A stretch of 64,000 nt of DNA from Aurantiochytrium sp. KH105 (Eukaryota > Sar > Bigyra > Thraustochytrida > Thraustochytriidae): positions 496,001 to 560,000 of the forward strand of contig BGKB01000022.1 in assembly GCA_003116975.1 (NCBI GenBank). Reading direction: 5' to 3'. Made by a program: the position numbers and the translations under genes. The notes under the pieces are model-generated. The model saw only the letters and a program-made list of their open reading frames with translations, was not told where the DNA came from and ran no database searches. Each line of letters starts with the position of its first letter. Position 1 is the first letter of the stretch. Below, one piece after another: positions 49,213 to 63,972 of the stretch.

Positions 49213-50492
49213 TATCTGCTGCAGCTGATCATAATTTATTGCAATCGCACGCGAAGGTCCTCCCTCCCTCCATTGTGCAGTCGTGATGGTGGTAGCGGTG
49301 GTAGCGGTGGTCACCGTGCGACGGCAGCGGATGCTGCTGCTGCTGCTGCTGCTGCTGCTACTACTACTACTACTGCTATTACTAGTCTTACTACGAACCA
49401 AGAGTCCAGCCTTTGTGTGCTCATGCGCTCACCACCTATAATGACATGATGAAATTTCCATGATTGAAACACGAGACTGTGAATCCAGTACCGAGGCGCA
49501 CTTCTACCATGTCTGTCTTCTCCCCGACTTCCATAGTCCTTGCAAACTAGTTATCCCCCTCCTTCAACGCACAAAAGTCGATAACAAAAACTAGTGCAAC
49601 ACTACGCAACCAGGCCCCTAGATCCCCTCGCACGACGCGCAAAGCCCCGCAGCCGCGCCCCATGGCCGCGCAATGGAGTGCGCCCCTGCTTGCCGCCTAA
49701 TGCCGCTGTGGGCGTCTTTCACCCCCCGTCCGTCGCCACCACACCTGGCCGCCGCGTGCCTGGACAAGCAGCGCAAAGAGCAGCAGCCATGGCAGGAGCG
49801 CCCGCGCCCCTCGCTCGGCCCTTCCCGCCGCCTCGATCACGCGCCGCGCCGCGGCCCGGGCGGCGCAAGCCGGCTCCCCGCCGGCGGCCGCGGACGCCCC
49901 GCGCCGAGAGGCGCGTGCGCGGGCGGGCGAAGCGGGCGGCAAGCAAGGGAAGGAGCGAGGGAGGGAGGGAGCGAGGGAGTGCGCGTGCGGTGCTTCGTGC
50001 GTCGCGAGCTGGAGCAGAGGGCTGGATTTCCAGCGGGGCCGCGCGTGGGGTAATGTCTCCGGGTCTGGTGCGCGTGCGCGCCTGGGTTGTTCGTCTAAAT
50101 GCATGGGAAAGAGGGAGAGGCTATGCGAAGGGACCCAGCGCGCGGCCCCGCGGGAGAGGCGGGGACGCGCAGGGAGCCAAGAGGGCCGGCGCGCGCAATG
50201 GACTCGAAGCGCCGCGCGTGCACGTAAAGCAAAGCCGGCGAGGCCAGCCCAGGCCAGCCACGCAGAGCAGAGCAAAGCAAAGAAAAGCAAAGCGTGTTCG
50301 TCGCGGCGGCCTTGGCGGGCGCGGTCGCTTCGGTCGGTGCTTGGTCGCGCGGAGGGCCGCGGGCACCTACCTGCGCGGGCCGGTGACGAACGATTGGATT
50401 GATTGGACTGCGAGGCCCCTCGCGCACGCAAAGCCAGCCGCCTTGCTTGAAGAACGCGGGTGCAGGCAGAGCAAGAGACGCGCGGCGGCACG
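49213..50492. other. Spacer upstream of the giant glycosyltransferase gene
   Basis: A 1.28-kb stretch. The first ~400 bp (zinc-finger 3'UTR) contains GGTAGCGGTGGT and a (CTG)n/(CTA)n run at about 49329-49378. The rest is GC-rich (49620-50490) with Arg/Ala/Pro low-complexity frames and no recognisable gene. It presumably contains the next promoter and leader. Confidence 0.6.
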
Positions 50493-53400
50493 ATGAGCGG
50501 GAGTGAGTGCAGCGTAGACGCCTTCGCGTGGGTCGAGGCGAGCCAACACGCGCCGACGACGCTGGACTGGAGCTTGAACGGCAAGCTCGCGCCCAACTTT
50601 AACAGAAACCAAGTTGCCATCGTCGTGCCCGTGCTCAAGCTCGATGGGCTCCTTCCAGTCGCTTGCCGCGACTCCGAGGTGATCGCAGCCGGCACCCTCT
50701 TGGACGGCTCCCAGCAGAACTATACCGGGGAATGGTCAGAACAAGACCTCGGGTATCGCATCATCGTCAATGCACCCGTGGGCATCAACTCACTCGCAAT
50801 CTCTCTGGACAACCGATACGTCACAACGCTCGACTACTCCCCCTTGGAGCCCGAAGTCCGGCGCAATGTTCTCTATACCATCCTGGGCGCCGTTGGCTTT
50901 GCCTTTCTCTGGGTTCTTCTCTATATTGGCATCGACTCTTGTCGGCGATACCGGCGTCGCCGCAGGCTCCGCCATCGAGACCGAGCCCGCGTTGCTGGAA
51001 AGGATGGCCCCGATCTCGAGTCCGAGCCCGAGTCCGTCGACTTTGAAGACCAAGAGAGTGGTCGCGGCAGCGGCAGCGGAGGCAGCATGAAATATACCAA
51101 TCTTTTGCGCCAACAGCGGCCCGAGAAGCGCACGCGCGAGGTGCAGCAAATGCAGCTCAAGGCCCATCGTGAAATTCGGGACGCTGCCATGGTCAAATTC
51201 AAGACCTTTCTCCCCGAGGATCCCATGGCCGTCGCCGTCTGGCTTGAAACCTCGGTCTGTCATCTCGAGGACTTCAAGCAGGTTTATGGCATCACGCTCT
51301 TTGACATTGCGCGCCAGACGCACACCTATCTCCTGCAGAAGCTGCGCCCCGGCGGCGCCAAGGGCATGTCTTGGGAAATGCCCGAGTGGTCGCGCATGGC
51401 CCTCATTCGGGATGGCTACTTTTTCGTCATCGTGGTCATGGCCGAGCTCATTCTCGAAGGTTTCACCGGCTCCGGCGTCTTTACCAGCGAGCAAATGTCT
51501 CGAGGGACCAAAGACATGGTCACTATCGCCCTCGCCGTCGGTCTTTCCTGTGTATTGCCGTTCATGATGTCCATGAGCCGCAATGCTTCACCGTTTTTGT
51601 ACCAGCTTGTCCTTGCAAGCGTTCCCACGGTCCTTTGCAGAGACCTGACGGGCGGGATCATTTGCGCGTCCTTGGCTGGCGTTATTGCTTTTGTCATCAC
51701 CATTTGCATCCATCAATGGAATGCCGTATTGGCAGCACTCGTGGGGCTCATTGCCTTCGAGTTCGGACTCTTTATGCTCTTCGCTACGATGCTTTACCTC
51801 TTTCGTGTCCCGGATCCCCATGTTCAGTTGGCCGGAGGCAGGAACCCGATTTACCTCTTTCTCGTCGTACTCGTCATGATGGTTCCCTTTGCCCTTAACC
51901 GCCTCATTCACAAGGACTCCGACTACTTTTGGGTCGGCATTCACGCCGCGAGTATGTTTCTCGCCATCATGGTCATGGCGATCCGCATCCGCGTTCTCGC
52001 CAAGGCCTGGAACCTGTGGCTCCCCGGATTGCTGCGCTTGGCCTCGGAGATGAAGCAAGGCGATATTACCGAGAACTTGGCCTTGCGTACGCGTCGCGAC
52101 CGCGAAGAAGCATTGTGGATCGTGAACCGCAAGATCCCCGACAGTGATCAATGGAAACCGTACGAGGAAACAGCCACGGCCGGATTTTGGGAATACTATG
52201 GTATGGCGATGGAGGAACTTCGAAAAACGGCCATTGGCACGCCTGAACGCCGCTCCGGCGAGCTCTTTGACGGCAACGCCAACGAGATTGTCCACGGCGT
52301 CTTGTACTTTGTCATTCTCTCCTTCTCGGCCGTCCCTCTCTTCTTCTCCAAGGGCACCTCGAGCACGGTTTCGCGCGGCGTTCTCTTTGCCATGATTGCT
52401 TTTCTCTTTTCAGCTGGCACCATTGAACTTTTTGTTGGTCAGATCGCCGATGCCAAACAGCAAGAGAACCACGAGCTTCTCATCCCCGCGAGCAAGCGCA
52501 TCGTGCGCGTGATTGAACAAAAAATGCATCACGCGCGTCTCGAGGCCTACGGTCGTGTCATTTGCAGCTACCAGCTCACAGTTTTGCGTTGGTTCATTCT
52601 CGCCACCATTGTGGTCTATCTGCTTGAGCCCGCTGCGCTCTTTGTTACGCTGCCGTTCTCCACTGGGTACAACCTCGTCCTCTTTGCCATGATTTCGCGC
52701 ATGTTTCTCAGTGGTTACGCGGATCGGGCTCATGTTGCGGTGATCATGGGCATCTTGGTTGGCGCCTTTGTGTTTTTGCTCTTTTCCGTTGTCACGCTCT
52801 ATTCCACGCAGATCGCGCCTCTCGTGGTCCTCACATGCCTTGCGATTCGCGCCCTGCGCTACGTTGCACTGTCGTATGCAACCTTTGACAGCGGTGCTCC
52901 GATGCTCGTGTCCAACATGATTCTCGACGTTACGCGGGCGAGCTTTGTGCACATGATCCTTACCGTATCGACCGCGGTGCTCAGTTTTTGGGCTGGCGAA
53001 GCGGCCATGCTCAAGATTAACGAGTCCTTTTTCTCAAAGGCATCAATTACGTCTTCGGCGGCTATCTTTGCCTCGGCCATTGCCGCGACCGTGCTCGCCA
53101 ATGTTGTGGTCTATGGTTTCTACCCCTTTATGCGTCTGTTCCGCTTGCGTTCGCTCGTGGAGTGGGACGAGCTCGTTGAATATCGCGTCACCTGCTTTCT
53201 CGCCTTTCTCGCCGGCTTCGTCTACCTCTACCTCTCGCCCCTGTCCCTCGGCGCCCTGCTCGGATTTGTCACAGCCACCATCATTTACGCCCACACCGTG
53301 CGTCATCTTGTGCTGCAGCCGCGCAACACATGGCACAACACCATCGACCCTAACGACATTCCCATGACCAGTGGCAAACGTATTTTGGACGGCGGAGGTC

Positions 53401-56400
53401 TCACGCAGGTCAAGCCGGAAATTCGTGAGCAGCAGCTCGCAGATAAGCTGCGGACTGGCAGGATCAACGCAGTTCCACTGATCTTCGAAAACGGTGGACT
53501 TGGAGATCAGCTGCTCGATTTCATTGATCGCAAACGTCATCTCTTTTCGCGTAGTGCCCTTCGCGCCATCGTACCAACCGCAGGAGGCGCGAGCAGTACT
53601 GCCAATGTGAATTACGACTATCGCGCGACCGCCGAGGATGAGGCGCACACCTTTTTGCAAAGCATTATCCTCAACTTGCTCGAGACACTCATTGGGGACT
53701 GTCGCGCGGGCAATACAATCGTCCATCTCTGCGACCAGAACATCCTTTACAAAGAGGGCTTCATGGCCATTGGCATTCGTCGCAAACAAGCAAACAGCAA
53801 GCTTGGCGGCGGTGCACGGAGCGGCGCTGCGGCGCCCAACCGTCAGCCCCAGGGCGCTGATGCCATGATGATCACCAAGAACGGTACCACGTGGCGCGCC
53901 TCGCCGCTCTGGCGCTCGCAGGCTAACAATCGTCTGAACATCTACGTTGGCGTTGATCCGAGCCTGCTCCGGACTCACAAGCAAGCTCTTGCGGACCAGG
54001 ATCCCGCCACAGATATGGCTCTTGGCCGCATCGCGGAGTGCATGCTCCACGAATTCGTCGAGGACGCCACGCGAAGCCACGCCCTTGCTTCCGTCTCGGA
54101 GCTGGCCATGCTTGAGGCGCGCCGCGATGGTTTTCTCCCACGAAGCACGCGATGGCAGCTCGACCGCATGGCCGCTTCGCGCTTGGACCGCTTGACGCAC
54201 ACAAGGGACCAGACGGACCCCGAAGTAGAACGACGCAATGCCAACGCAAAGCGCCTACCCGTTGGCTGGCGCTTCGACAAGGCCTCCTGGGTCGAGACCT
54301 GCTCGGTGCAAAAGGAACTCGCGCTGGAAATTGGCGATTACTGTGATACACTTTTGGAAAAATCGCGGCACAAAGGTTTGCGAAGGTTCTTTTGTGGATC
54401 TGGTCGCAGGCAATGTAGCATTTTCTACCGCTGGGTGTATGTGTTCACCTCGGTGTCTCTGCGTCTCTGGTACATTGGTCTGCGTGGCGACATGCAGGTG
54501 CACCGCGAAGTGTGCGCCTATATCAAGCACGTTAACATTACCCCGTTCCCGATTGGCAACATCAACCTTTTGCTTTTCGTTCATAAATTCTTTGCGCGCC
54601 CGCTCTTTCTGCTGACCATTCACATTTTTGCGTGGTCGTGCACGCCTCTTTACATTCAATGCAAGGGCCGGAGCGCATGGGGCAGACTCAAGCCGCCGCA
54701 TGCCAAGCTGGGTCTTGAAACGCCCGGTCGCGCTGCCGATGTGCTTGCGCTCAAAGAAGCAGCGCGAGCCACAATCTTTGAGGTCCACGAGCTCCGCGAC
54801 GATGGACAGACACTGGTGCCCGGAATGCTTGCGAGCGTTCTCGACGAGATCATTCTTACGCGTATGAAGGAGCTCCGACCCTATTGGGCCGAGCGTCGTC
54901 GCATGTGCCGAGGCCGCATGCCCTTTCTCAAATTTTCGCGCGGTACGGAGCGTCTTCTTGAGCAGCAGCTCAAGCCACCAACCAAGACGATGGAAACCAC
55001 TACGCTTGCGCATACAGCGCAGGACCTGCTGATCATGGGCGGCGCAGGATCCTCGCACAAGACCATTCACCCAGCGCGCGCGGACAAGGTTGACGTCATC
55101 ATCGATGCCTCGGCAACGCTCTTTTACGTTTCCGGTGGCGTGACAACCTGCCTCATGCAGCTTATCAATCATGGGGGCGTCAACGAAGATTTTAACCTGC
55201 ACGTGCTGGCCGAAGTTGCGTCGAACTCGACGCCTCGGATCGCCGCGCCGACGCGCTGCGTTTCCTCGATCCACCCAATCCCACTGCATGATGTGACGAG
55301 CTCGCCCGAGTCCTCAATTCACTCCTCGCGGCCTTACTTTGACCTGGCCCTGCGAAAGCAGCGCACGACATCTTGGGTCTTGCGCGCGCGCTTTCACCCG
55401 CTGCTGCGTGAGCTCATTCGCGGCTGCTGTGAGCTCCAGGGCGTCGACGATCGCTCTTCCCAGGTGAACGAGTACTTTTCAGAGGTCGTGGTCGCCCTCT
55501 ACGAATTTTTTGAGCAGTACGATTGGAACACGGCCTGGACCGATGGCCTTACGTGGCGTGTTTGGGTGCAGACGTGGCTCACGATTCTCGAGGAGAAACC
55601 CACGTCTGTGCAGCGGCTCTGGGCGCCTTCACTGCCTGGCCTGCAAGAGTCGCTCATCTTCTTTTCCCAGACGCTGCGCTCGTTGTGCTGCGAGCTGCCT
55701 CGCGCCGACCTGTACCATTCATCGCACCATGGCATTGGCGCGCTCAAGGCTATTGTGCACAAGCAACGCTTCAAGTCGCGCGTCATTGTCTGGGATCACG
55801 GTATTCTTCTGCGTGAGCGCCTTGATCAGCTTTGTGCAGATGACTGTCTTCTGAACCCCTTTACACGAAACGCCATCATCGGTCTCACCCGTCTCACCGC
55901 GCGTCTCGTTTATAACACTGCCGATCTGATCTGTCCGTGCACAGACACCAACATGTACCGCTCCTGGATTTGTCTTATCGCCGGCCGACCCTCGCACGGT
56001 CCATTTGCGAAGCGCATTCAGCCTATTTCCAATGGCACACAGCCGCTGGACGACCAGCTGCAATACAAGCCAATTCGTGGGTTCTACGAGGACCCGAAGC
56101 TCGACGAGGCCGAAGGTCCCGTCGTCGATCCGGAACACGTCCACGTGGTCGCGCTTTCGCACGTTTTGCGCATCAAGGACATTGTCAATGCCATCAAGGC
56201 CGCTCATCATATTGTGTACACGCGCGGTGTCAGCGTGTACCGCTTGCACATTTTCGGAGGTCTCGACAAGGATCCCAAGTACACTGCAGAGTGCAAGCAA
56301 GCCATCACGGATCTCAAGCTGGAACCTTATGTGACACTGCACGGTCTCGGCGCCAAGCTCACGGTGCTCGCCAAGGGTGATCTCTTTATCAACTCCTCGT

Positions 56401-57737
56401 TTTCTGAGGGCCTCCCAATGGCCATTCTCGAGGCAGAGATGGCGCACATGGCCGTCGTATGCACAGACGTGGGCGGCTCACGGCAAGTCGTTCCGGACGC
56501 GCGCTCGCGCGCACCGCCACGAGACCCCGTAAGTCTGGGCAATGCACAGATCCTCACACTCTGTGGCTACTATGAAGAAGCCGATGACGCGAAGCTTGAC
56601 GACCTGCTGTTGAGCACCAAGGCCCGGCGCGGCCGCGAAGCGATTGGCGAGGCCAACTTTAAGCTTGCGATGAAGGGTCACCAGGAGACGGCTACCTACG
56701 ACAAGCACCACGACGTCATGCTGCAATACGCAACTGATCTCGAGGACCCTTCGGGTGTAAAATTGAATCCGCCTCCATATTCGGTCAAGGTCTTTAGTCC
56801 CATCAATGTGCAGGTCGCAACCGCGGGTCCGGAAAAGAAGAGGCGCGGCAAAAAGTCCAATGTTCAGCTCAAGCAAAAGTCGCGCTCAAAGGCACCTACC
56901 TCTGGCAGGTCGAACAGGTCCCGCGGACCCTTTGATGACGATGCCCGTTCCGCCGTTTCTCGAACCACCGCGCACACACGGCGCACCCCTCATGGCAAGT
57001 CATCGTATGCCGAGACAGAGCCCGAGGCCTTTGAAGACGAGGACTTTTACGAGGACGATAATGATGATGACTACGGCCAAGACGACGAGGACTATGAGGA
57101 GAGCGTCTTCACGGATGTGGACAGCACGCCACTCGACGATCTCGTGCCCCGGGTGGTGCAGCGGAGCTCCATGCAGCTTGACATGGACTACGTTCGCAAC
57201 GTGCGTCATGGGTCGCATCATCCGGACGAAGATGAATATGGCGTTTCCCCCTCGCCCTTTCGCAGTGGCGCGACCTCCCTGAGACCCATGTCGACCGTGA
57301 TGGCCGCTCTCCGGAGAAATTCGGCGACGCACTCAGCCGACGGTGAGCGCCGACAGTACGAACAAGATCGTAGCTTTGGCCACACCACAGGCGGGCGTTC
57401 AGAGGCGCCGTTGCAGCGCGCGGCAACATTGCTCGACCTGAATGGAGATGGGACACGCTCAGGAAGGTCCGGCCCAACTTCTTCGTCTCGAATCAGTGCT
57501 GGCATTCTGTCGTTGTTTCGCTCATCAGGACCGCAAGAAAGGTCGCCTGCGTCGACAGCTCCTGGTGACCACGGGTCGCAAGCGCTTTCGTTTCGGACGC
57601 GGGAGTATTCCGAGGACGATCTGGAAAAGGGCATTTACGGCGGTGCGAGGAGCAAGTACGGCGATGAGGACGTGGAGGCAGACCTTGACGACGAGGAAGA
57701 AGACGACGCTAGCGACTCGCGGCGGCGAAGGAGGTAA
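50493..57737 (+). CDS. Polytopic membrane protein fused to a PelF-like GT4 glycosyltransferase
   Basis: A 2,414-residue single-exon protein from the ATG at 50493. A ~120-residue N-terminal domain with a glycosylation sequon precedes TM1. A basic and acidic cytosolic loop follows, then about 18 hydrophobic helices between residues ~300 and ~960. A soluble region (~970-1280) and possibly two more helices (~1310-1390) come next. The C-terminal enzyme (~1530-2060) follows bacterial PelF: VDVIIDASATLFYVSGGVT opening, YHSSHHGIGALKAI, WDHGILLRERL (from 1767), an ISNGT loop, SHVLRIKDI, and SSFSEGLPMAILEAE with the GT4 E-x7-E (E1972/E1980), then VVCTDVGGSRQVV. The last ~300 residues are disordered. 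PelF makes the Pel exopolysaccharide from nucleotide sugars. This protein may synthesise and export a wall or matrix polysaccharide; that is inference. Confidence 0.85.
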   Translation: MSGSECSVDAFAWVEASQHAPTTLDWSLNGKLAPNFNRNQVAIVVPVLKLDGLLPVACRDSEVIAAGTLLDGSQQNYTGEWSEQDLGYRIIVNAPVGINSLAISLDNRYVTTLDYSPLEPEVRRNVLYTILGAVGFAFLWVLLYIGIDSCRRYRRRRRLRHRDRARVAGKDGPDLESEPESVDFEDQESGRGSGSGGSMKYTNLLRQQRPEKRTREVQQMQLKAHREIRDAAMVKFKTFLPEDPMAVAVWLETSVCHLEDFKQVYGITLFDIARQTHTYLLQKLRPGGAKGMSWEMPEWSRMALIRDGYFFVIVVMAELILEGFTGSGVFTSEQMSRGTKDMVTIALAVGLSCVLPFMMSMSRNASPFLYQLVLASVPTVLCRDLTGGIICASLAGVIAFVITICIHQWNAVLAALVGLIAFEFGLFMLFATMLYLFRVPDPHVQLAGGRNPIYLFLVVLVMMVPFALNRLIHKDSDYFWVGIHAASMFLAIMVMAIRIRVLAKAWNLWLPGLLRLASEMKQGDITENLALRTRRDREEALWIVNRKIPDSDQWKPYEETATAGFWEYYGMAMEELRKTAIGTPERRSGELFDGNANEIVHGVLYFVILSFSAVPLFFSKGTSSTVSRGVLFAMIAFLFSAGTIELFVGQIADAKQQENHELLIPASKRIVRVIEQKMHHARLEAYGRVICSYQLTVLRWFILATIVVYLLEPAALFVTLPFSTGYNLVLFAMISRMFLSGYADRAHVAVIMGILVGAFVFLLFSVVTLYSTQIAPLVVLTCLAIRALRYVALSYATFDSGAPMLVSNMILDVTRASFVHMILTVSTAVLSFWAGEAAMLKINESFFSKASITSSAAIFASAIAATVLANVVVYGFYPFMRLFRLRSLVEWDELVEYRVTCFLAFLAGFVYLYLSPLSLGALLGFVTATIIYAHTVRHLVLQPRNTWHNTIDPNDIPMTSGKRILDGGGLTQVKPEIREQQLADKLRTGRINAVPLIFENGGLGDQLLDFIDRKRHLFSRSALRAIVPTAGGASSTANVNYDYRATAEDEAHTFLQSIILNLLETLIGDCRAGNTIVHLCDQNILYKEGFMAIGIRRKQANSKLGGGARSGAAAPNRQPQGADAMMITKNGTTWRASPLWRSQANNRLNIYVGVDPSLLRTHKQALADQDPATDMALGRIAECMLHEFVEDATRSHALASVSELAMLEARRDGFLPRSTRWQLDRMAASRLDRLTHTRDQTDPEVERRNANAKRLPVGWRFDKASWVETCSVQKELALEIGDYCDTLLEKSRHKGLRRFFCGSGRRQCSIFYRWVYVFTSVSLRLWYIGLRGDMQVHREVCAYIKHVNITPFPIGNINLLLFVHKFFARPLFLLTIHIFAWSCTPLYIQCKGRSAWGRLKPPHAKLGLETPGRAADVLALKEAARATIFEVHELRDDGQTLVPGMLASVLDEIILTRMKELRPYWAERRRMCRGRMPFLKFSRGTERLLEQQLKPPTKTMETTTLAHTAQDLLIMGGAGSSHKTIHPARADKVDVIIDASATLFYVSGGVTTCLMQLINHGGVNEDFNLHVLAEVASNSTPRIAAPTRCVSSIHPIPLHDVTSSPESSIHSSRPYFDLALRKQRTTSWVLRARFHPLLRELIRGCCELQGVDDRSSQVNEYFSEVVVALYEFFEQYDWNTAWTDGLTWRVWVQTWLTILEEKPTSVQRLWAPSLPGLQESLIFFSQTLRSLCCELPRADLYHSSHHGIGALKAIVHKQRFKSRVIVWDHGILLRERLDQLCADDCLLNPFTRNAIIGLTRLTARLVYNTADLICPCTDTNMYRSWICLIAGRPSHGPFAKRIQPISNGTQPLDDQLQYKPIRGFYEDPKLDEAEGPVVDPEHVHVVALSHVLRIKDIVNAIKAAHHIVYTRGVSVYRLHIFGGLDKDPKYTAECKQAITDLKLEPYVTLHGLGAKLTVLAKGDLFINSSFSEGLPMAILEAEMAHMAVVCTDVGGSRQVVPDARSRAPPRDPVSLGNAQILTLCGYYEEADDAKLDDLLLSTKARRGREAIGEANFKLAMKGHQETATYDKHHDVMLQYATDLEDPSGVKLNPPPYSVKVFSPINVQVATAGPEKKRRGKKSNVQLKQKSRSKAPTSGRSNRSRGPFDDDARSAVSRTTAHTRRTPHGKSSYAETEPEAFEDEDFYEDDNDDDYGQDDEDYEESVFTDVDSTPLDDLVPRVVQRSSMQLDMDYVRNVRHGSHHPDEDEYGVSPSPFRSGATSLRPMSTVMAALRRNSATHSADGERRQYEQDRSFGHTTGGRSEAPLQRAATLLDLNGDGTRSGRSGPTSSSRISAGILSLFRSSGPQERSPASTAPGDHGSQALSFRTREYSEDDLEKGIYGGARSKYGDEDVEADLDDEEEDDASDSRRRRR

Positions 57738-58467: not shown

Positions 58468-61400
58468 ATGGCGGACGACTGGCGACGCCGAGATCGCGAT
58501 GGCCCCGGCGCGGGACCCGGCGGCGGCGGCGGCGGCCGAGCAGCACCGCGCGCGCAGAGGGGAGGCCGGAGCGGAGGCGGCGGCGGCGGCCGGAACGGCA
58601 ACTTTGGCCGTAGACATGGGCATGGTGGGAACAACAACAGCAGCAGCAACAACAGCCACAGCAACAGCAATAACAACAATCTTGGGAACTTTAGAGGCGG
58701 GGCCGCCGACCAGGGGAGCGGGTGGACAACCGTGGGCGGCGGAGGCCGCTTCTCGCACCCGTCGCCAACTTCGTCCGTGGCGTCCGGACCTGCCTCGGCG
58801 CCCATGCCACCCGGCGGTGCAGTCCCACTCAACCGACGAGATTTCTCTTCGCAAAAGGATGCCGTCGCGGCTGCCGGAATCTCCGAGAACCAGGAAATCA
58901 AAAATGTCAAGGTCGTGGAAGTCGGCGTTGGAGGCACGCTAGTGGAGCTGAAGCAAAACATCTTTGGTCTCGTGAGCGGACTGGAACTTCAATCTGCGAA
59001 CGGCACGCTCGAAGTCGTGGTTGTGACCAAAGTGCTGGCCTCGGGTCTTGTGCTTCTGCGCTGGGGCCTGGCACGCGAACCGGAAAAGGACGGTCCGCTC
59101 ATCATTCTCGATCTCAATGGCGTGCTCGTGAATCGGCCAAACTTCAAGGACCGTGGCCGCCACGGGCCTCCCGGCAGTCGCCCGACCTTTACGCGGCGAC
59201 CCTTTTGCGATGAATTCATCCACTTTTGCATGGAGCACTTTCATGTTGGCGTGTGGTCTTGCGGCAAAAGCCAGAACATGGAGATGGAACTCTTTGATGC
59301 GTATCCGGGACGGGTGCTCTTCCAATGGGACCAGGAGAAGTCCACCAATGAATGGCCTCGGAGGTCCGTCGTGTCCGAGGCGAAGCCCCTTTTTCTCAAG
59401 GATCTGAACAACATCTGGAGCGCCTTTGAAGGCCGCTTCACGGCTGCAAATACCTTGCTGCTCGATAACCACGCGGAAAAATTTGAGCGCAACCCCGTGG
59501 CAACCTGTGTCCTGGTTCCAGACTTTGATGCGCAACATCCTGACAACATCTTGAGCCCCACGGGTGACTTTTGCCGCGCGCTGGCACAGTACGCGACAGA
59601 AGCGACACGGGAAGGAAGTTCGCGTCCGGCAAGTCTGGATTCTATTCAGCAAGTCTACCTGCGCGATCGTCTGGCGACCGTCTTTACGTCGAGCGAGATC
59701 ATGAAGAGAAACTGCCCGGACCGAGATGTTGGCTTTTACATGCAACATCGCGACATACCGGGCCCGCGTGCAGAGCCTTTCCGACTCTCCAAGCTCCTTT
59801 CCGTTGGGCAAGAGCACAAGCGCTGGGTCGTTTGCGAGAAGTCGGATGGCGTGCGCCACATGCTTCTAGGCTTACCCGGGCCGGGACGCGAATGCTTTCT
59901 TGTCGATCGCGCATGGAATTTTCGCTACGTCGGTTCCTTCGAGGCCAACAACGCGGACGGTGATGAACTGGATTCCAAGGATGACTGGCTTCTGTTGGAT
60001 GGTGAGATTGTTGCTGAAAATGGGTACCTTATCTTTGACGTCGTTCGCCTCGGCGCACGAGACGTGGGTGCTCTTCCGAATTTACGTGAACGCATGAGCC
60101 TTTGGCACGACTTTCGTGGCGATCGTGATTCGCTTGGTAATCTTTCTTTGATTGACAAGGTGTTCGTGGACCTTTGTGAGATTTCGACGCTGCAAGAGGC
60201 GGCACACACCTTTACCTACCCACACGTGGGCGAGGTGTCTTGCGACGGATTGGTGCTTACTCCTCTGCAAAAGAATTATTACGAGTATACGGTCATCAAG
60301 TACAAGCCCGTGGAAGAGCTGACGGTGGACTTTCGCATCTTCACTCGGGATCTCAATGGTAAAAAGCCTCGCGTGCCATTACACTTGTCAGACCATGTCA
60401 CTGTCGCAGGGCGATCTGGAATGACAGACATTGAGACGAGCGAGGGCATAGTGGACGATAAGTTGCGTGATGAGATCAATCGACACGGCGGCAATCGCGG
60501 GCGCGGCGGATCGCGGAAACCGTCCAGCACGATTGTGGAATGTCGCTTTGACAAAGACTTGGGCGCATGGCGCGGGGTTCGCGGGCGTTTTGACAAGGTT
60601 CGCCCGAACTCTCTCCGAACGGGATGGAGCGTTATCGAATCTGTTGCTGAAGCCGTTTCTGTTGAGGACCTCATTCAGCGCGTCGAGGCACTAGTGCAAG
60701 AATACCCGGAAGGCATCATTGAGGAGAACGAAGTCGCCACGGTCGCTGCGCACTATAATGAGCGGCAAAGCGAGCGAAACAATAAGGGCAGGGATCAGCT
60801 CGATGCTGGCATTGCGAATCTGCGCAAGTTAAACAATTGGGCAAAGGCGGTCATGATTCACGAATGCTGCATGGGCAAACTGACGAACGGTCCGGAGACA
60901 AAGTCGTCCTCCGCGAGTCTGCCAGGTATTCCCAAGATGCTAGGACCGAATTCGAGAAATATGAGCCACAAGGCCGTCCGCGAAGCGGAGCGCGCGCAAC
61001 CCAAACGTCAGGTACCTATGCGCATTCTAGATTTGGCGTGTGGGCGCGGAGGGGACCTTGCCAAGTGGCGTGCGAGCGCGGCAACAATTCAGTCCTATGT
61101 CGGGGTCGATATTGCAAGCGTGGCACTGGAAGAGGCGCGTCGTCGCGCCCCCTCCGGCAATCAGCACGTCTTTGTGGAAGGAGACATCTCCGATCCTGCA
61201 CTGGAGGAGCATGAAGCCTTCAAGGGCCAATCATTTGATGTTGTAAGCACCCAGTTCGCCTTTCATTATCTATGCGGCGAGGAAGATCGCTGTGAGCGCT
61301 TCTTTTCGCTCTGCAGCAATGCGCTCTCCAGTCCCGCGCAGACTGTGGAAGGACAGGACACTTTCGAGCCGCTTTTGCTCGTGTCAACCACGGACGCAGA

Positions 61401-61776
61401 CGTCTTGCACGCACGCCAACCCAATTTCTCCAACAAGGTGTGCGCCGTGTCCTTTGCGGATCCTCTACCCGCTGATCCAGCAGACATCGCTTTTGGAAGT
61501 GCCTACAGCTTTTCCCTTGGCGATGCTGTTCAGGACTGCAAGGAGTTCGTTGTCCCCGAAGCGCGCATCAAAGCGATGGCAGCTCGCCACGGCCTCGAGC
61601 TCGTCGTCTCTCAGAACCTTTCTGCCTTTGTATCAGACAAGTGCAAGGCGTACGAGGCAATGCTGCACTCGATGTCTGTGATTGGTCACAAAACGCAGGG
61701 CAGGCCCCCGATGTCTCAGGACGAGTGGGAGGCCATTCAGCTTTACAAGATGATGGTCTTTAGAAAAACAAAATAG
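58468..61776 (+). CDS. mRNA capping enzyme: FCP1-like domain + guanylyltransferase + cap N7-methyltransferase
   Basis: A 1,102-residue fusion. Residues 1-100 are Gly/Arg/Asn-rich. Residues ~209-365 form an FCP1/NIF HAD domain: LDLNGVLVN (D215, N217), then RRPFCDEFIHFC, VGVWSCGKSQN, KPLFLKDLNNIW and NTLLLDNHAEKFERNP, close to the DLNG class known from plants. The guanylyltransferase (~430-690) has motif I KSDGVR (K458, GMP-binding lysine), LLLDGEIV, SCDGLVLTP and KYKPVEELTVDF. The cap methyltransferase (~780-1102) has LDLACGRGGDLAKW (D855 onward) and VVSTQFAFHYL. Together the second and third domains would add GMP to the 5' diphosphate end of nascent mRNA and methylate it at N7. No RNA triphosphatase domain is visible. 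The nucleophile D215 is kept, but the second HAD Asp is Asn. Confidence 0.9.
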   Translation: MADDWRRRDRDGPGAGPGGGGGGRAAPRAQRGGRSGGGGGGRNGNFGRRHGHGGNNNSSSNNSHSNSNNNNLGNFRGGAADQGSGWTTVGGGGRFSHPSPTSSVASGPASAPMPPGGAVPLNRRDFSSQKDAVAAAGISENQEIKNVKVVEVGVGGTLVELKQNIFGLVSGLELQSANGTLEVVVVTKVLASGLVLLRWGLAREPEKDGPLIILDLNGVLVNRPNFKDRGRHGPPGSRPTFTRRPFCDEFIHFCMEHFHVGVWSCGKSQNMEMELFDAYPGRVLFQWDQEKSTNEWPRRSVVSEAKPLFLKDLNNIWSAFEGRFTAANTLLLDNHAEKFERNPVATCVLVPDFDAQHPDNILSPTGDFCRALAQYATEATREGSSRPASLDSIQQVYLRDRLATVFTSSEIMKRNCPDRDVGFYMQHRDIPGPRAEPFRLSKLLSVGQEHKRWVVCEKSDGVRHMLLGLPGPGRECFLVDRAWNFRYVGSFEANNADGDELDSKDDWLLLDGEIVAENGYLIFDVVRLGARDVGALPNLRERMSLWHDFRGDRDSLGNLSLIDKVFVDLCEISTLQEAAHTFTYPHVGEVSCDGLVLTPLQKNYYEYTVIKYKPVEELTVDFRIFTRDLNGKKPRVPLHLSDHVTVAGRSGMTDIETSEGIVDDKLRDEINRHGGNRGRGGSRKPSSTIVECRFDKDLGAWRGVRGRFDKVRPNSLRTGWSVIESVAEAVSVEDLIQRVEALVQEYPEGIIEENEVATVAAHYNERQSERNNKGRDQLDAGIANLRKLNNWAKAVMIHECCMGKLTNGPETKSSSASLPGIPKMLGPNSRNMSHKAVREAERAQPKRQVPMRILDLACGRGGDLAKWRASAATIQSYVGVDIASVALEEARRRAPSGNQHVFVEGDISDPALEEHEAFKGQSFDVVSTQFAFHYLCGEEDRCERFFSLCSNALSSPAQTVEGQDTFEPLLLVSTTDADVLHARQPNFSNKVCAVSFADPLPADPADIAFGSAYSFSLGDAVQDCKEFVVPEARIKAMAARHGLELVVSQNLSAFVSDKCKAYEAMLHSMSVIGHKTQGRPPMSQDEWEAIQLYKMMVFRKTK

Positions 61777-61818: not shown

Positions 61819-63972
61819 CTAGGAAGGAAGCATGAGAGACTCTTCCAGGCTCTTGTAAGCACCTTGCTGCTTTTGTTGGGCAGCCCGCAAGTCTTCAATG
61901 AGTTTGCGCTCAAGATCCTCGAGGCGCTGCACCTCCTCTTCCTTTTGTTTGACTCGCTGCGCCTCGTGAGCGAGCTGGCGAGCTTTTTCTGCTTGTCGCT
62001 GCCGATGAAACTCTGCCTCGCGCCTTTGCTGCTCCTCGCGCTTCCGACGGACTTGATCCAGGCGCGCCTTGCGCTTTTGCTCCTTTTCCTGCAGCCACTT
62101 GGCCTCCATCTTCTTCTTTTCTGCAAGAATACGCTGTTTCTCCTCTTGGCACTGCTGCGTAAGCGTGCGCTTGTGTACGAATTGCTTTTTCAGGACCTCT
62201 TGTCGTTTCTCGCGAGCGTGCGTCCTCAGCTTTTTGTTCTTTTCTGTGTCTTGAATGATCAGCGTTGTGTTGCTTGCCTTGTGGTTCTGCAGCGCCTGCG
62301 AGCGTTCCAGGCGCTCTCGACGCTGCTCTCGGATTTGGTCCACCCGATCCTCGGTCTCTGCGATCTTCTTCTGCGTCGCGTCGTGCTCGCTCTTGAGATG
62401 TTGCAGACGGTTTTTTAGCAGCTGAATGTCTTCCTCCAGATTCTTGCGCTTTTTCTTCTCCTTGCGTAGGCCATCCTGTACTTCGGCAATGGTCCAGGTG
62501 CTTACCTCTGCATACTCTTCCGAGTCATCCTCGACCTCATTCTTTGCTGCTGTACTCCTTCCTTTTATGCCAGTTCGCAAACTCATGGGCGTTCCGGGTG
62601 TTCCGTCATCTTTGCTTTCTGCGTCATCTCGCTCGCGATCTTTGTCAGGAGATAGATTTAGGCTTTCCCGCTGCACCGATCGAGAGCTGCTCTTCTGGGA
62701 ACGTGGGCTACTTTGCGGTGATTCAGCATCATCGGCTTGCTGCGAGTGAAGACTGGTTTCTTCTTCCAGCCGCAAGCTGCTTTTCTCTTGCGAGCGAGCA
62801 CTGCTCTTTTCTTGCGAGCGAGCACTGCTCTTTTCCTGTGAACGAGCGCTACTTTTTTCTTGGGAGCGAGCACTGCTCTTTTCTTGCGAGCGAGCGCTGC
62901 TTTTTTCCTTTGAGCGAGCACTGCTCTTTTCCTGTGAACGAGCACTGCTCCTTTCTTGCGAGCGGGCACTGTTCTTTTCTTGCGAGCGAGCACTGCTTTC
63001 TTCCTTTGAGCGAGCACTGCTCTTTTCCTGTGAACGAGCGCTACTCTTTTCTTGGGAGCGAGCGCTACTCTTTTCTTGGGAGCGAGCACTGCTCTTCTCC
63101 TGTGAACGAGCGCTACCTTTTTGCGAAGACGCATTCTCGGATACGACTTTTCCATTTGACTCAGCTGCTTCGGACTCCTCGCGATTATTGTTCTCTTCGC
63201 TTTCGGAACTTGATCCCTCTTCGCGCCTCGGAGAGCGTTGCGATGACCTAGAGTTGCGCCGGCTTCTTGCACTAGCCGATCCCTCTTCTCTTGACTTTTC
63301 CTCGGCCACCTCGTCTTCATCCACATCAGATGCAAACTCTGCATTGTTCTGGTCGTCGTCGCCGCCGCCATTCTGCTTGGTTTCTTCGTCACTTTCTCGC
63401 TTTTCTTCCACGTCCTCTTCTGCATTCCTCTCGTCTCCCTCATCGTCAGTTCCCTTGGGAGTTTGCATGTCGCGAGATGAAGCTTTGTCGCCCTCGTTTG
63501 TCTCGTCAGGATCGCCAGCACTGAGCTCTGCTTTGGACGTCTCGTTCCCATCGTCGTGAGCGGAACTCTGGACGTCATCTCCATTCTTTGATTCTTGTTC
63601 TGCATTATTCTTTTCTTCTTCTTCGCGATGTGCATCTTCTGCGTACTGGATCTTGGAGGTCTTGTCATGACCAGGAGCATTCTCTTCCGGCTCATCGTTT
63701 GCTGCAGTGTGATTTTCCTCGCCGGATTCGGTCTTTTCTTCTCCTACTTCTGCGTCATCTTGTTTTTCCTCAGATTCAGGGTCGTCATCGAGCTTGTTTT
63801 CATCGTCTGGAAGGACATCACGGCCCTGCTCATCGTCCTCAGCTGCCTTTGCTTCGCCTGCTGCGTCGTCTTCATTTCCACGCTCCGCTTCCTCCTTGGT
63901 TCCTTGCAAACGACCGCTTCGCGGCCGTTCGTTGCCATCGGCATCGTTGACCTTTTCCTCGTTGTCTGCCAT
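61819..63972 (-). CDS. Acidic, repeat-bearing coiled-coil protein
   Basis: A 717-residue protein from the ATG at 63972. Residues 1-285 are highly acidic and hydrophilic. A tandem array of about 14 copies of an 8-residue unit SSARSQEK follows. A Ser/Gln stretch leads to a charged, mostly continuous coiled coil (about 480-700; Glu/Lys/Arg/Gln-rich, with TWTIAEVQDGLRKEKKKRKNLEEDIQLL). No known domain is seen. Its composition resembles cytoskeletal or flagellar coiled-coil proteins, but there is no specific evidence. Its stop is only 42 bp from the stop of the capping-enzyme gene, so the 3'UTRs probably overlap. Confidence 0.75.
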   Translation of the reverse strand: MADNEEKVNDADGNERPRSGRLQGTKEEAERGNEDDAAGEAKAAEDDEQGRDVLPDDENKLDDDPESEEKQDDAEVGEEKTESGEENHTAANDEPEENAPGHDKTSKIQYAEDAHREEEEKNNAEQESKNGDDVQSSAHDDGNETSKAELSAGDPDETNEGDKASSRDMQTPKGTDDEGDERNAEEDVEEKRESDEETKQNGGGDDDQNNAEFASDVDEDEVAEEKSREEGSASARSRRNSRSSQRSPRREEGSSSESEENNNREESEAAESNGKVVSENASSQKGSARSQEKSSARSQEKSSARSQEKSSARSQEKSSARSKEESSARSQEKNSARSQERSSARSQEKSSARSKEKSSARSQEKSSARSQEKSSARSQEKSSARSQEKSSARSQEKSSLRLEEETSLHSQQADDAESPQSSPRSQKSSSRSVQRESLNLSPDKDRERDDAESKDDGTPGTPMSLRTGIKGRSTAAKNEVEDDSEEYAEVSTWTIAEVQDGLRKEKKKRKNLEEDIQLLKNRLQHLKSEHDATQKKIAETEDRVDQIREQRRERLERSQALQNHKASNTTLIIQDTEKNKKLRTHAREKRQEVLKKQFVHKRTLTQQCQEEKQRILAEKKKMEAKWLQEKEQKRKARLDQVRRKREEQQRREAEFHRQRQAEKARQLAHEAQRVKQKEEEVQRLEDLERKLIEDLRAAQQKQQGAYKSLEESLMLPS
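62776..63117 (-). repeat. In-frame 24-bp tandem repeat (about 14 units)
   Basis: Near-identical 24-bp units (on the + strand GAGCACTGCTCTTTTCTTGC and variants) encode the 8-residue unit SSARSQEK. Variants such as SSARSKEE and NSARSQER mark older copies. All units keep the frame. Confidence 0.95.

What the first reader, a model, noticed from the sequence alone, without database searches (positions are those of the whole stretch)
58468..61776. Capping enzyme carrying an FCP1-like CTD-phosphatase domain in place of an RNA triphosphatase
One frame encodes an FCP1/NIF HAD domain, a guanylyltransferase with its GMP-lysine motif (K458) and a cap N7-methyltransferase. Guanylyltransferase-methyltransferase fusions are known in trypanosomatids, and viral enzymes add a triphosphatase. 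I do not know of one carrying an FCP1-like domain. FCP1 enzymes act on the RNA polymerase II CTD, whose Ser5-phosphorylated form recruits capping enzymes, so the fusion could couple capping to CTD dephosphorylation or simply dock on the CTD. The HAD motif is DLNG rather than DxD, so it may be a non-catalytic CTD reader.
Basis: partly seen in the sequence, partly recalled or inferred. Interest (0 to 1): 0.85.

Follow-up and report, generated by a model that had tools for sequence, protein, structure and literature searches.

The report
Second mRNA-capping enzyme with phosphatase-like domain
A single-celled eukaryote and several related algae carry an extra mRNA-capping enzyme in which an altered phosphatase-like module, of the kind that elsewhere acts on RNA polymerase II, is built onto the capping and cap-methylating parts; what the extra module does is not yet known.

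Summary
It is not a chance join: 21 relatives pair the NIF region with capping domains, including a transcriptome protein and three named ochrophyte algae. NIF is the most conserved domain; the host's two alleles give dN/dS about 0.12. "In place of an RNA triphosphatase" is not supported: the same genome encodes a separate guanylyltransferase and a triphosphatase-like/methyltransferase fusion, so this is a second capping enzyme. D-x-N is not recent decay: it marks a wider NIF subfamily including plant proteins, while the nucleophile Asp, motif II Ser, motif III Lys and motif IV Asp are kept. Best reading: a second m7G-capping enzyme whose HAD domain binds or slowly processes a phosphorylated ligand, perhaps the Pol II CTD. 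A bolder reading, an HAD-type RNA 5'-phosphatase, is not excluded. No paper describing the fusion appeared in our searches. New variant of a known kind; biochemistry is needed.

The parts
58468..61776 (+). Whole gene: S1-like/NIF-HAD/guanylyltransferase/N7-methyltransferase fusion, 1,102 aa, stop at 61774-61776
   Evidence: 19 relatives aligned; second allele
58468..58845 (+). Residues 1-126: disordered Gly/Arg-rich tail
   Evidence: pLDDT under 50; RG/GR dipeptides in 14 of 15 N-termini counted
58888..59082 (+). Residues 141-205: probable S1/OB-like domain (five strands 143-199)
   Evidence: Models; Foldseek matches to ribosomal S1 domains; Pfam S1 below cut-off in 3 of 4 homologous pieces; no Pfam S1 hit in P0001 itself
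59083..59607 (+). Residues 206-380: NIF/SCP-type HAD domain
59110..59118 (+). D215-L216-N217: HAD motif I, nucleophile Asp kept, acid/base Asp replaced by Asn
   Evidence: 19 of 19 fusions that have the columns
59257..59259 (+). S264: HAD motif II
   Evidence: 20 of 20 fusions
59398..59400 (+). K311: HAD motif III
   Evidence: 20 of 20 fusions; Lys in all 21 stand-alone and 8 host NIF rows
59464..59466 (+). D333: HAD motif IV Asp
   Evidence: 20 of 20 fusions; Asp in all 21 stand-alone and 8 host NIF rows
59758..60342 (+). Residues 431-625: guanylyltransferase catalytic domain
   Evidence: Pfam mRNA_cap_enzyme 450-604
59839..59841 (+). K458: predicted GMP-lysine nucleophile
   Evidence: 20 of 20 fusions
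60343..60687 (+). Residues 626-740: guanylyltransferase OB domain
   Evidence: Pfam mRNA_cap_C 683-736
60688..61773 (+). Residues 741-1102: cap N7-methyltransferase domain
   Evidence: Pfam mRNA_G-N7_MeTrfase 844-1100; PDB sequence match to yeast and human enzymes

Best explanation
Shown: the gene encodes a conserved chain (RG-rich tail, probable S1/OB domain, D-x-N HAD domain of SCP/FCP1 fold, guanylyltransferase, N7-methyltransferase) and the same genome holds a separate capping set. Inferred: it is a second m7G-capping enzyme that takes RNA with a 5'-diphosphate, adds GMP through K458 and methylates the guanine; the triphosphatase step is done in trans (L019 protein) or is not needed for its substrates. 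The S1-like and RG-rich parts hold RNA. The HAD domain keeps the nucleophile Asp and the motif II, III and IV residues but lacks the acid/base Asp, so it most likely docks on, or slowly dephosphorylates, a phosphorylated ligand. The likeliest ligand is the Ser-Pro tail of Pol II or a linked factor, which would direct this enzyme to a subset of transcripts. Sub-odds: second capping enzyme about 0.85; HAD as protein phospho-ligand module about 0.4. The figure below is for the whole.
For: Catalytic motifs of GTase and MTase conserved in the fusions (K458, G461, R463, D511, E513, K611 and K613 20 of 20; MTase D863 and D881 17 of 17 rows that have them). NIF is the most conserved domain (mean pairwise identity 0.50, 190 pairs, against 0.35 GTase, 0.32 OB, 0.34 MTase). 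Separate GTase and TPase-like/MTase genes, each only 24% identical to the fusion over the aligned part. HAD fold nearest SCP phosphatases, which act on the CTD (PMC7281111, abstract listing and one passage). Host RPB1 has a Ser-Pro-rich CTD. S1-like evidence. Alleles dN/dS about 0.12.
Against: No activity, binding, localisation or expression data. HAD conservation above that of the catalytic capping domains, and RNA-binding-like neighbours, fit an RNA ligand at least as well. Motif I is not DxDx(T/V). The host CTD is mostly period 9 and fusion-specific conserved residues were not mapped onto a ligand. The triphosphatase match of L019 is just under Pfam's cut-off, and a genome search with the same family found nothing.
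Confidence: 0.4

Rival explanations
1. HAD-type RNA 5'-end phosphatase: D215 removes the gamma phosphate of pppRNA (or another 5' phosphate), making the chain a self-contained three-step capping enzyme. A good leaving group could make the missing general acid tolerable, as recalled for P-type ATPases with Thr at that position (from memory, no call).
For: Position N-terminal to the GTase, as the triphosphatase in metazoan and plant enzymes (PMC2904801, passages); S1-like and RG-rich neighbours; highest conservation of all domains and nucleophile, Ser, Lys, Asp kept.
Against: Host has a triphosphatase-like gene elsewhere; the second Asp also activates water in the usual mechanism (PMC8069645, passage); no HAD RNA triphosphatase is known to me.
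Confidence: 0.15
2. Cytoplasmic or other recapping enzyme, comparable in role to trypanosome TbCe1: it restores caps on uncapped RNA, with the HAD domain trimming or sensing the 5' end.
For: Trypanosomes have two capping sets, one for recapping (PMC11417388, passages); a second set is present here; RNA-binding-like N-terminus.
Against: Recapping of monophosphate RNA needs a kinase; TbCe1 has one, this chain shows none in Pfam. Location unknown.
Confidence: 0.15
3. The HAD domain is a purely structural or protein-protein scaffold with no phosphate chemistry, as suggested for some NIF-fold proteins.
Against: Nucleophile Asp, motif II Ser, Lys and motif IV Asp are invariant, which a scaffold would not need.
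Confidence: 0.2
4. Annotation artefact: two genes or a chance open frame joined in this assembly.
For: No RNA data for this very gene.
Against: Same pairing in 21 relatives, a transcriptome-derived relative, two intact alleles.
Confidence: 0.02

Closest known systems
Trypanosome TbCgm1 (nuclear bifunctional guanylyltransferase/N7-methyltransferase)
   Same: GTase and N7-MTase in one chain; organism has two m7G-capping sets (PMC11417388, passages)
   Different: Fusion with a NIF/HAD and an S1-like domain; not compared by sequence here
Metazoan/plant capping enzyme (cysteine-phosphatase triphosphatase fused to GTase)
   Same: A phosphatase domain N-terminal to the GTase (PMC2904801, passages)
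   Different: HAD fold instead of cysteine phosphatase; activity unknown; MTase in the same chain here
Human CTD small phosphatases (SCP1/CTDSP1, CTDSP2) and FCP1
   Different: D-x-N instead of DxDx(T/V); fused to capping domains
Uncharacterised stand-alone D-x-N NIF proteins of plants and other eukaryotes
   Same: D-x-N motif I; 21 of 21 in the cleaned set
   Different: Not fused; lack the fusion-specific C265, S292, W296-P297-R298, N334-H335-x-E337 residues
Vaccinia capping enzyme D1 and related viral enzymes
   Same: Whole-chain Foldseek rank 1 (4ckc, E 7.6e-24, TM-score 0.22 to 0.28): GTase followed by MTase
   Different: No NIF domain; by sequence the closest PDB chains are cellular enzymes, vaccinia D1 not among the 31 hits at E<=1; no relative in one viral-contig scan

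Membership tests
NIF/FCP1-type HAD family (PF03031) | Pfam NIF match above the curated cut-off | tested here: met
   44.6 bits against 21.8
NIF/FCP1-type HAD family (PF03031) | SCP/FCP1 fold | tested here: met
Active FCP1/SCP phosphatase | DxDx(T/V) motif I | tested here: not met
   D215-L-N217-G-V; Asn in 19 of 19 fusions with the column
Active FCP1/SCP phosphatase | Motif II Ser/Thr, motif III Lys, motif IV Asp | tested here: met
   S264, K311, D333 in 20 of 20
Active FCP1/SCP phosphatase | Dephosphorylates the Pol II CTD | not testable with these tools
   Needs biochemistry
mRNA guanylyltransferase | KxDG nucleophile motif and the further conserved nucleotidyltransferase residues | tested here: met
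   K458-S-D-G-V-R; K458, G461, R463, D511, E513, K611, K613 20 of 20, D460 18 of 20 with Asn in 2
mRNA guanylyltransferase | Catalytic and OB Pfam domains above cut-off | tested here: met
   44.2 and 38.8 bits
Cap N7-methyltransferase | PF03291 above cut-off | tested here: met
   163.3 bits
RNA triphosphatase (TTM or cysteine-phosphatase class) | Matching domain in the fusion protein | tested here: not met
   No such family among the matches up to E 10
S1 RNA-binding domain | Pfam S1 above cut-off | tested here: inconclusive
   No hit in P0001; 3 of 4 homologous pieces 14.2-20.0 bits against 22; Foldseek S1 matches E 2.3e-3 and weaker
TbCgm1-like capping enzyme | GTase and MTase in one chain | tested here: met
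TbCgm1-like capping enzyme | Nuclear, acts on spliced-leader RNA | not testable with these tools
   No localisation data; trans-splicing not tested

The most novel reading that the evidence does not exclude
The D-x-N HAD domain is a third, so far unknown class of eukaryotic RNA 5'-end phosphatase (triphosphatase or 5'-phosphate proof-reader), so that this chain alone makes an m7G cap, as a second capping line for a set of RNAs in stramenopiles.
Probability: 0.15. Interest if true: 0.9.

Novelty: new variant of a known kind. Interest (0 to 1): 0.62.

Why it matters
It gives a eukaryote outside the trypanosomes with two m7G-capping sets, one of them a chain that joins a phosphatase-like and a probable RNA-binding domain to both capping steps. 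It makes testable whether capping is coupled in cis to reading or removing a phosphate, on Pol II or on RNA. It also gives a conserved and experimentally approachable context (for example Nannochloropsis) for a wide D-x-N phosphatase-like subfamily whose members in our hits carried no functional name beyond automatic ones.

Tried and rejected
Viral origin or a viral copy of the fusion: one scan of viral contigs matched 60 stretches by pattern, none a relative by tblastn. By sequence the closest PDB chains are cellular enzymes. A deep viral origin of parts is not excluded; no GTase or MTase tree was made.

RNA triphosphatase by family search of the whole genome: PF02940 found nothing and no control rang. 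The triphosphatase-like part was found only by reading the second MTase gene, so one search was a false negative or below threshold.

CTD by the Pfam repeat model PF05001: nothing, control silent. It was found by searching PF04998 and reading the hits.

Whole-chain Foldseek was filled with GTase and MTase matches, so residues 130-430 were modelled and searched alone.

Papers: listings held none describing the fusion (open-licence full texts only; subscription journals mostly missing). One search gave listings only. PMC11625350 (outline and abstract) was not useful.

Rows dropped: together gave 22 proteins; P0012 (no NIF), P0021 (near copy of P0018 with another C-terminus) and P0023 (starts inside NIF) were left out of A4, leaving 19 plus the window protein. 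P0038, a further NIF-plus-GTase protein, was found later and is not in A4. For the NIF tree 31 of the 70 new proteins were picked by hand; for ten of the 31 were dropped (long branches or likely pieces of fusions). The host rows are one allele of 8 of the 10 non-fusion NIF pairs. Several short rows fall inside the fusion group of the tree; they are taken as partial gene models, untested. The D-x-N count (60 of 70 by pattern, 1 with D-x-D, 9 without the pattern) is biased by a D-x-N query.

Full report
The finding. The frame 58468-61776 (+) translates into 1,102 residues without an internal stop. Pfam places NIF at 211-374, the guanylyltransferase (GTase) catalytic domain at 450-604, its C-terminal OB domain at 683-736 and the cap N7-methyltransferase (MTase) at 844-1100, all above curated cut-offs. 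Relatives P0002 and P0004 begin with similar residues, which supports the start codon.

Is it a real fusion? The first protein search gave 11 hits; 10 pair a NIF region with capping domains in the same order (P0009 gains its NIF hit; P0012 has none). A profile search gave 21 proteins at E<=1e-8, all with at least one capping domain; 19 carry a precomputed NIF hit, P0009 gains one, and P0023 starts inside NIF. In both searches only the roughly 8,000 candidates sharing most words were scored. P0038 from a third search is one more NIF-plus-GTase protein (NIF 6.9e-7, GTase 3.8e-17). Three hits bear organism names: Nannochloropsis oceanica, Chrysophaeum taylorii and Chrysoparadoxa australica, all ochrophyte stramenopiles; the other hits are unnamed. 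P0002 is a peptide from transcriptome MMETSP0098, a strain of the clam parasite QPX, called a thraustochytrid in titles cited by PMC6011583 (passages). So in that relative the domains lie on one transcript. In the host genome (G000, 76 Mb; the genes looked at mostly come in pairs) the second allele on C12 is intact with 1,104 residues. Between the alleles there are 56 synonymous and 22 non-synonymous changes, dS 0.0755 and dN 0.0088, a ratio of about 0.12 by simple counting. No RNA data exist for this very gene.

Anatomy beyond the finding. Residues 1-126 are predicted disordered and Gly/Arg-rich; RG/GR dipeptides occur in 14 of 15 N-termini counted. Residues 143-199 form five strands in both models. 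The model of residues 130-430 (mean pLDDT 89.0, pTM 0.82) has Foldseek matches to ribosomal protein S1 domains and to an eIF2alpha complex chain at E 2.3e-3 to 6.5e-3 over 65-80 columns (the output gives no aligned range, so their place in the OB part is inferred). Pfam S1 matches 3 of 4 homologous N-terminal pieces, below its cut-off, and does not match P0001. An S1/OB-like domain is likely, not proven.

A second capping set. PF01331 finds, besides the fusion's two alleles, a GTase on C132 (110.3 bits) and C8 (108.9 bits). The L014 frame of 429 aa matches only GTase families in Pfam and fungal GTases at E down to 1.8e-31 in the PDB. PF03291 finds a second MTase on C85 and C277; its 907-aa frame has an N-terminal mRNA_triPase match, E=2.7e-4, 21.1 bits against a cut-off of 24. 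The genome-wide search with that same family found nothing, and a PDB sequence search with the chain matched MTases but no triphosphatase, so the triphosphatase reading is probable, not sure. The stand-alone GTase and MTase are each 24% identical to the fusion over the aligned part. 'In place of an RNA triphosphatase' is therefore not supported; the fusion is an additional enzyme in this host. Whether the named algae also have two sets was not tested. Trypanosomes have two sets too, nuclear TbCgm1 (GTase-MTase) and cytoplasmic TbCe1 (kinase-GTase) with TbCmt1 (PMC11417388, passages).

The CTD. The RPB1 tail in L035 and L036 holds many YSPSSP units, mostly spaced as YSPSSPAAA or YSPSSPAQA, that is with period 9. 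A Ser-Pro ligand is available, though not the classic heptad.

Mechanism. GTase and MTase activity follow from conserved motifs (inference). The HAD domain keeps what HAD enzymes use to bind Mg and phosphate and to form the phospho-aspartate, but lacks the acid/base (sequence shown, consequence inferred). I hold a phospho-ligand docking module or slow phosphatase for a protein, probably the CTD or a linked factor, as most likely (about 0.4). The boldest reading not excluded is an RNA 5'-end phosphatase (about 0.15). Recapping and scaffold are further rivals. Against my preferred reading: the HAD domain is better conserved than the capping domains, and its neighbours look RNA-binding; both fit an RNA ligand at least as well.

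Novelty. GTase-MTase and TPase-GTase fusions are known. A capping enzyme joined to a NIF/FCP1-type domain was in none of the listings. I rate it a new variant of a known kind.

Limits.

Noticed in passing
L019 19-2742 (+), G000 C85; allele on C277 (L020): A triphosphatase-like domain fused to a cap N7-methyltransferase in one 907-aa frame: an unusual pairing of the first and last capping steps.
   Followed up: partly
L035, L036 (G000 C30, C87): RPB1 C-terminal tail made mostly of nine-residue YSPSSPAAA/YSPSSPAQA units instead of heptads.
   Followed up: partly
L040 and L043 (G000 C168:126500-134500): An extra, shortened RPB1-like frame (574 aa, Rpb1_5 match 122.8 bits) in a stretch of 43.5% GC, with no second copy seen among the matches; origin unknown.
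   Followed up: partly
L025/L030 and L026 (G000 C67/C157, C13): Two stand-alone D-x-N NIF genes in the same genome, candidates for the free-standing form of the fused HAD domain.
   Followed up: partly
window 50460-57737 (+): A 2,425-aa frame upstream with DUF3492 and glycosyl transferase group 1 matches, after a long stretch that looks membrane-embedded.
   Followed up: no
window 61819-63972 (-): A convergent 717-aa frame with many SARSQEKS-type repeats and charged stretches; no Pfam match.
   Followed up: no
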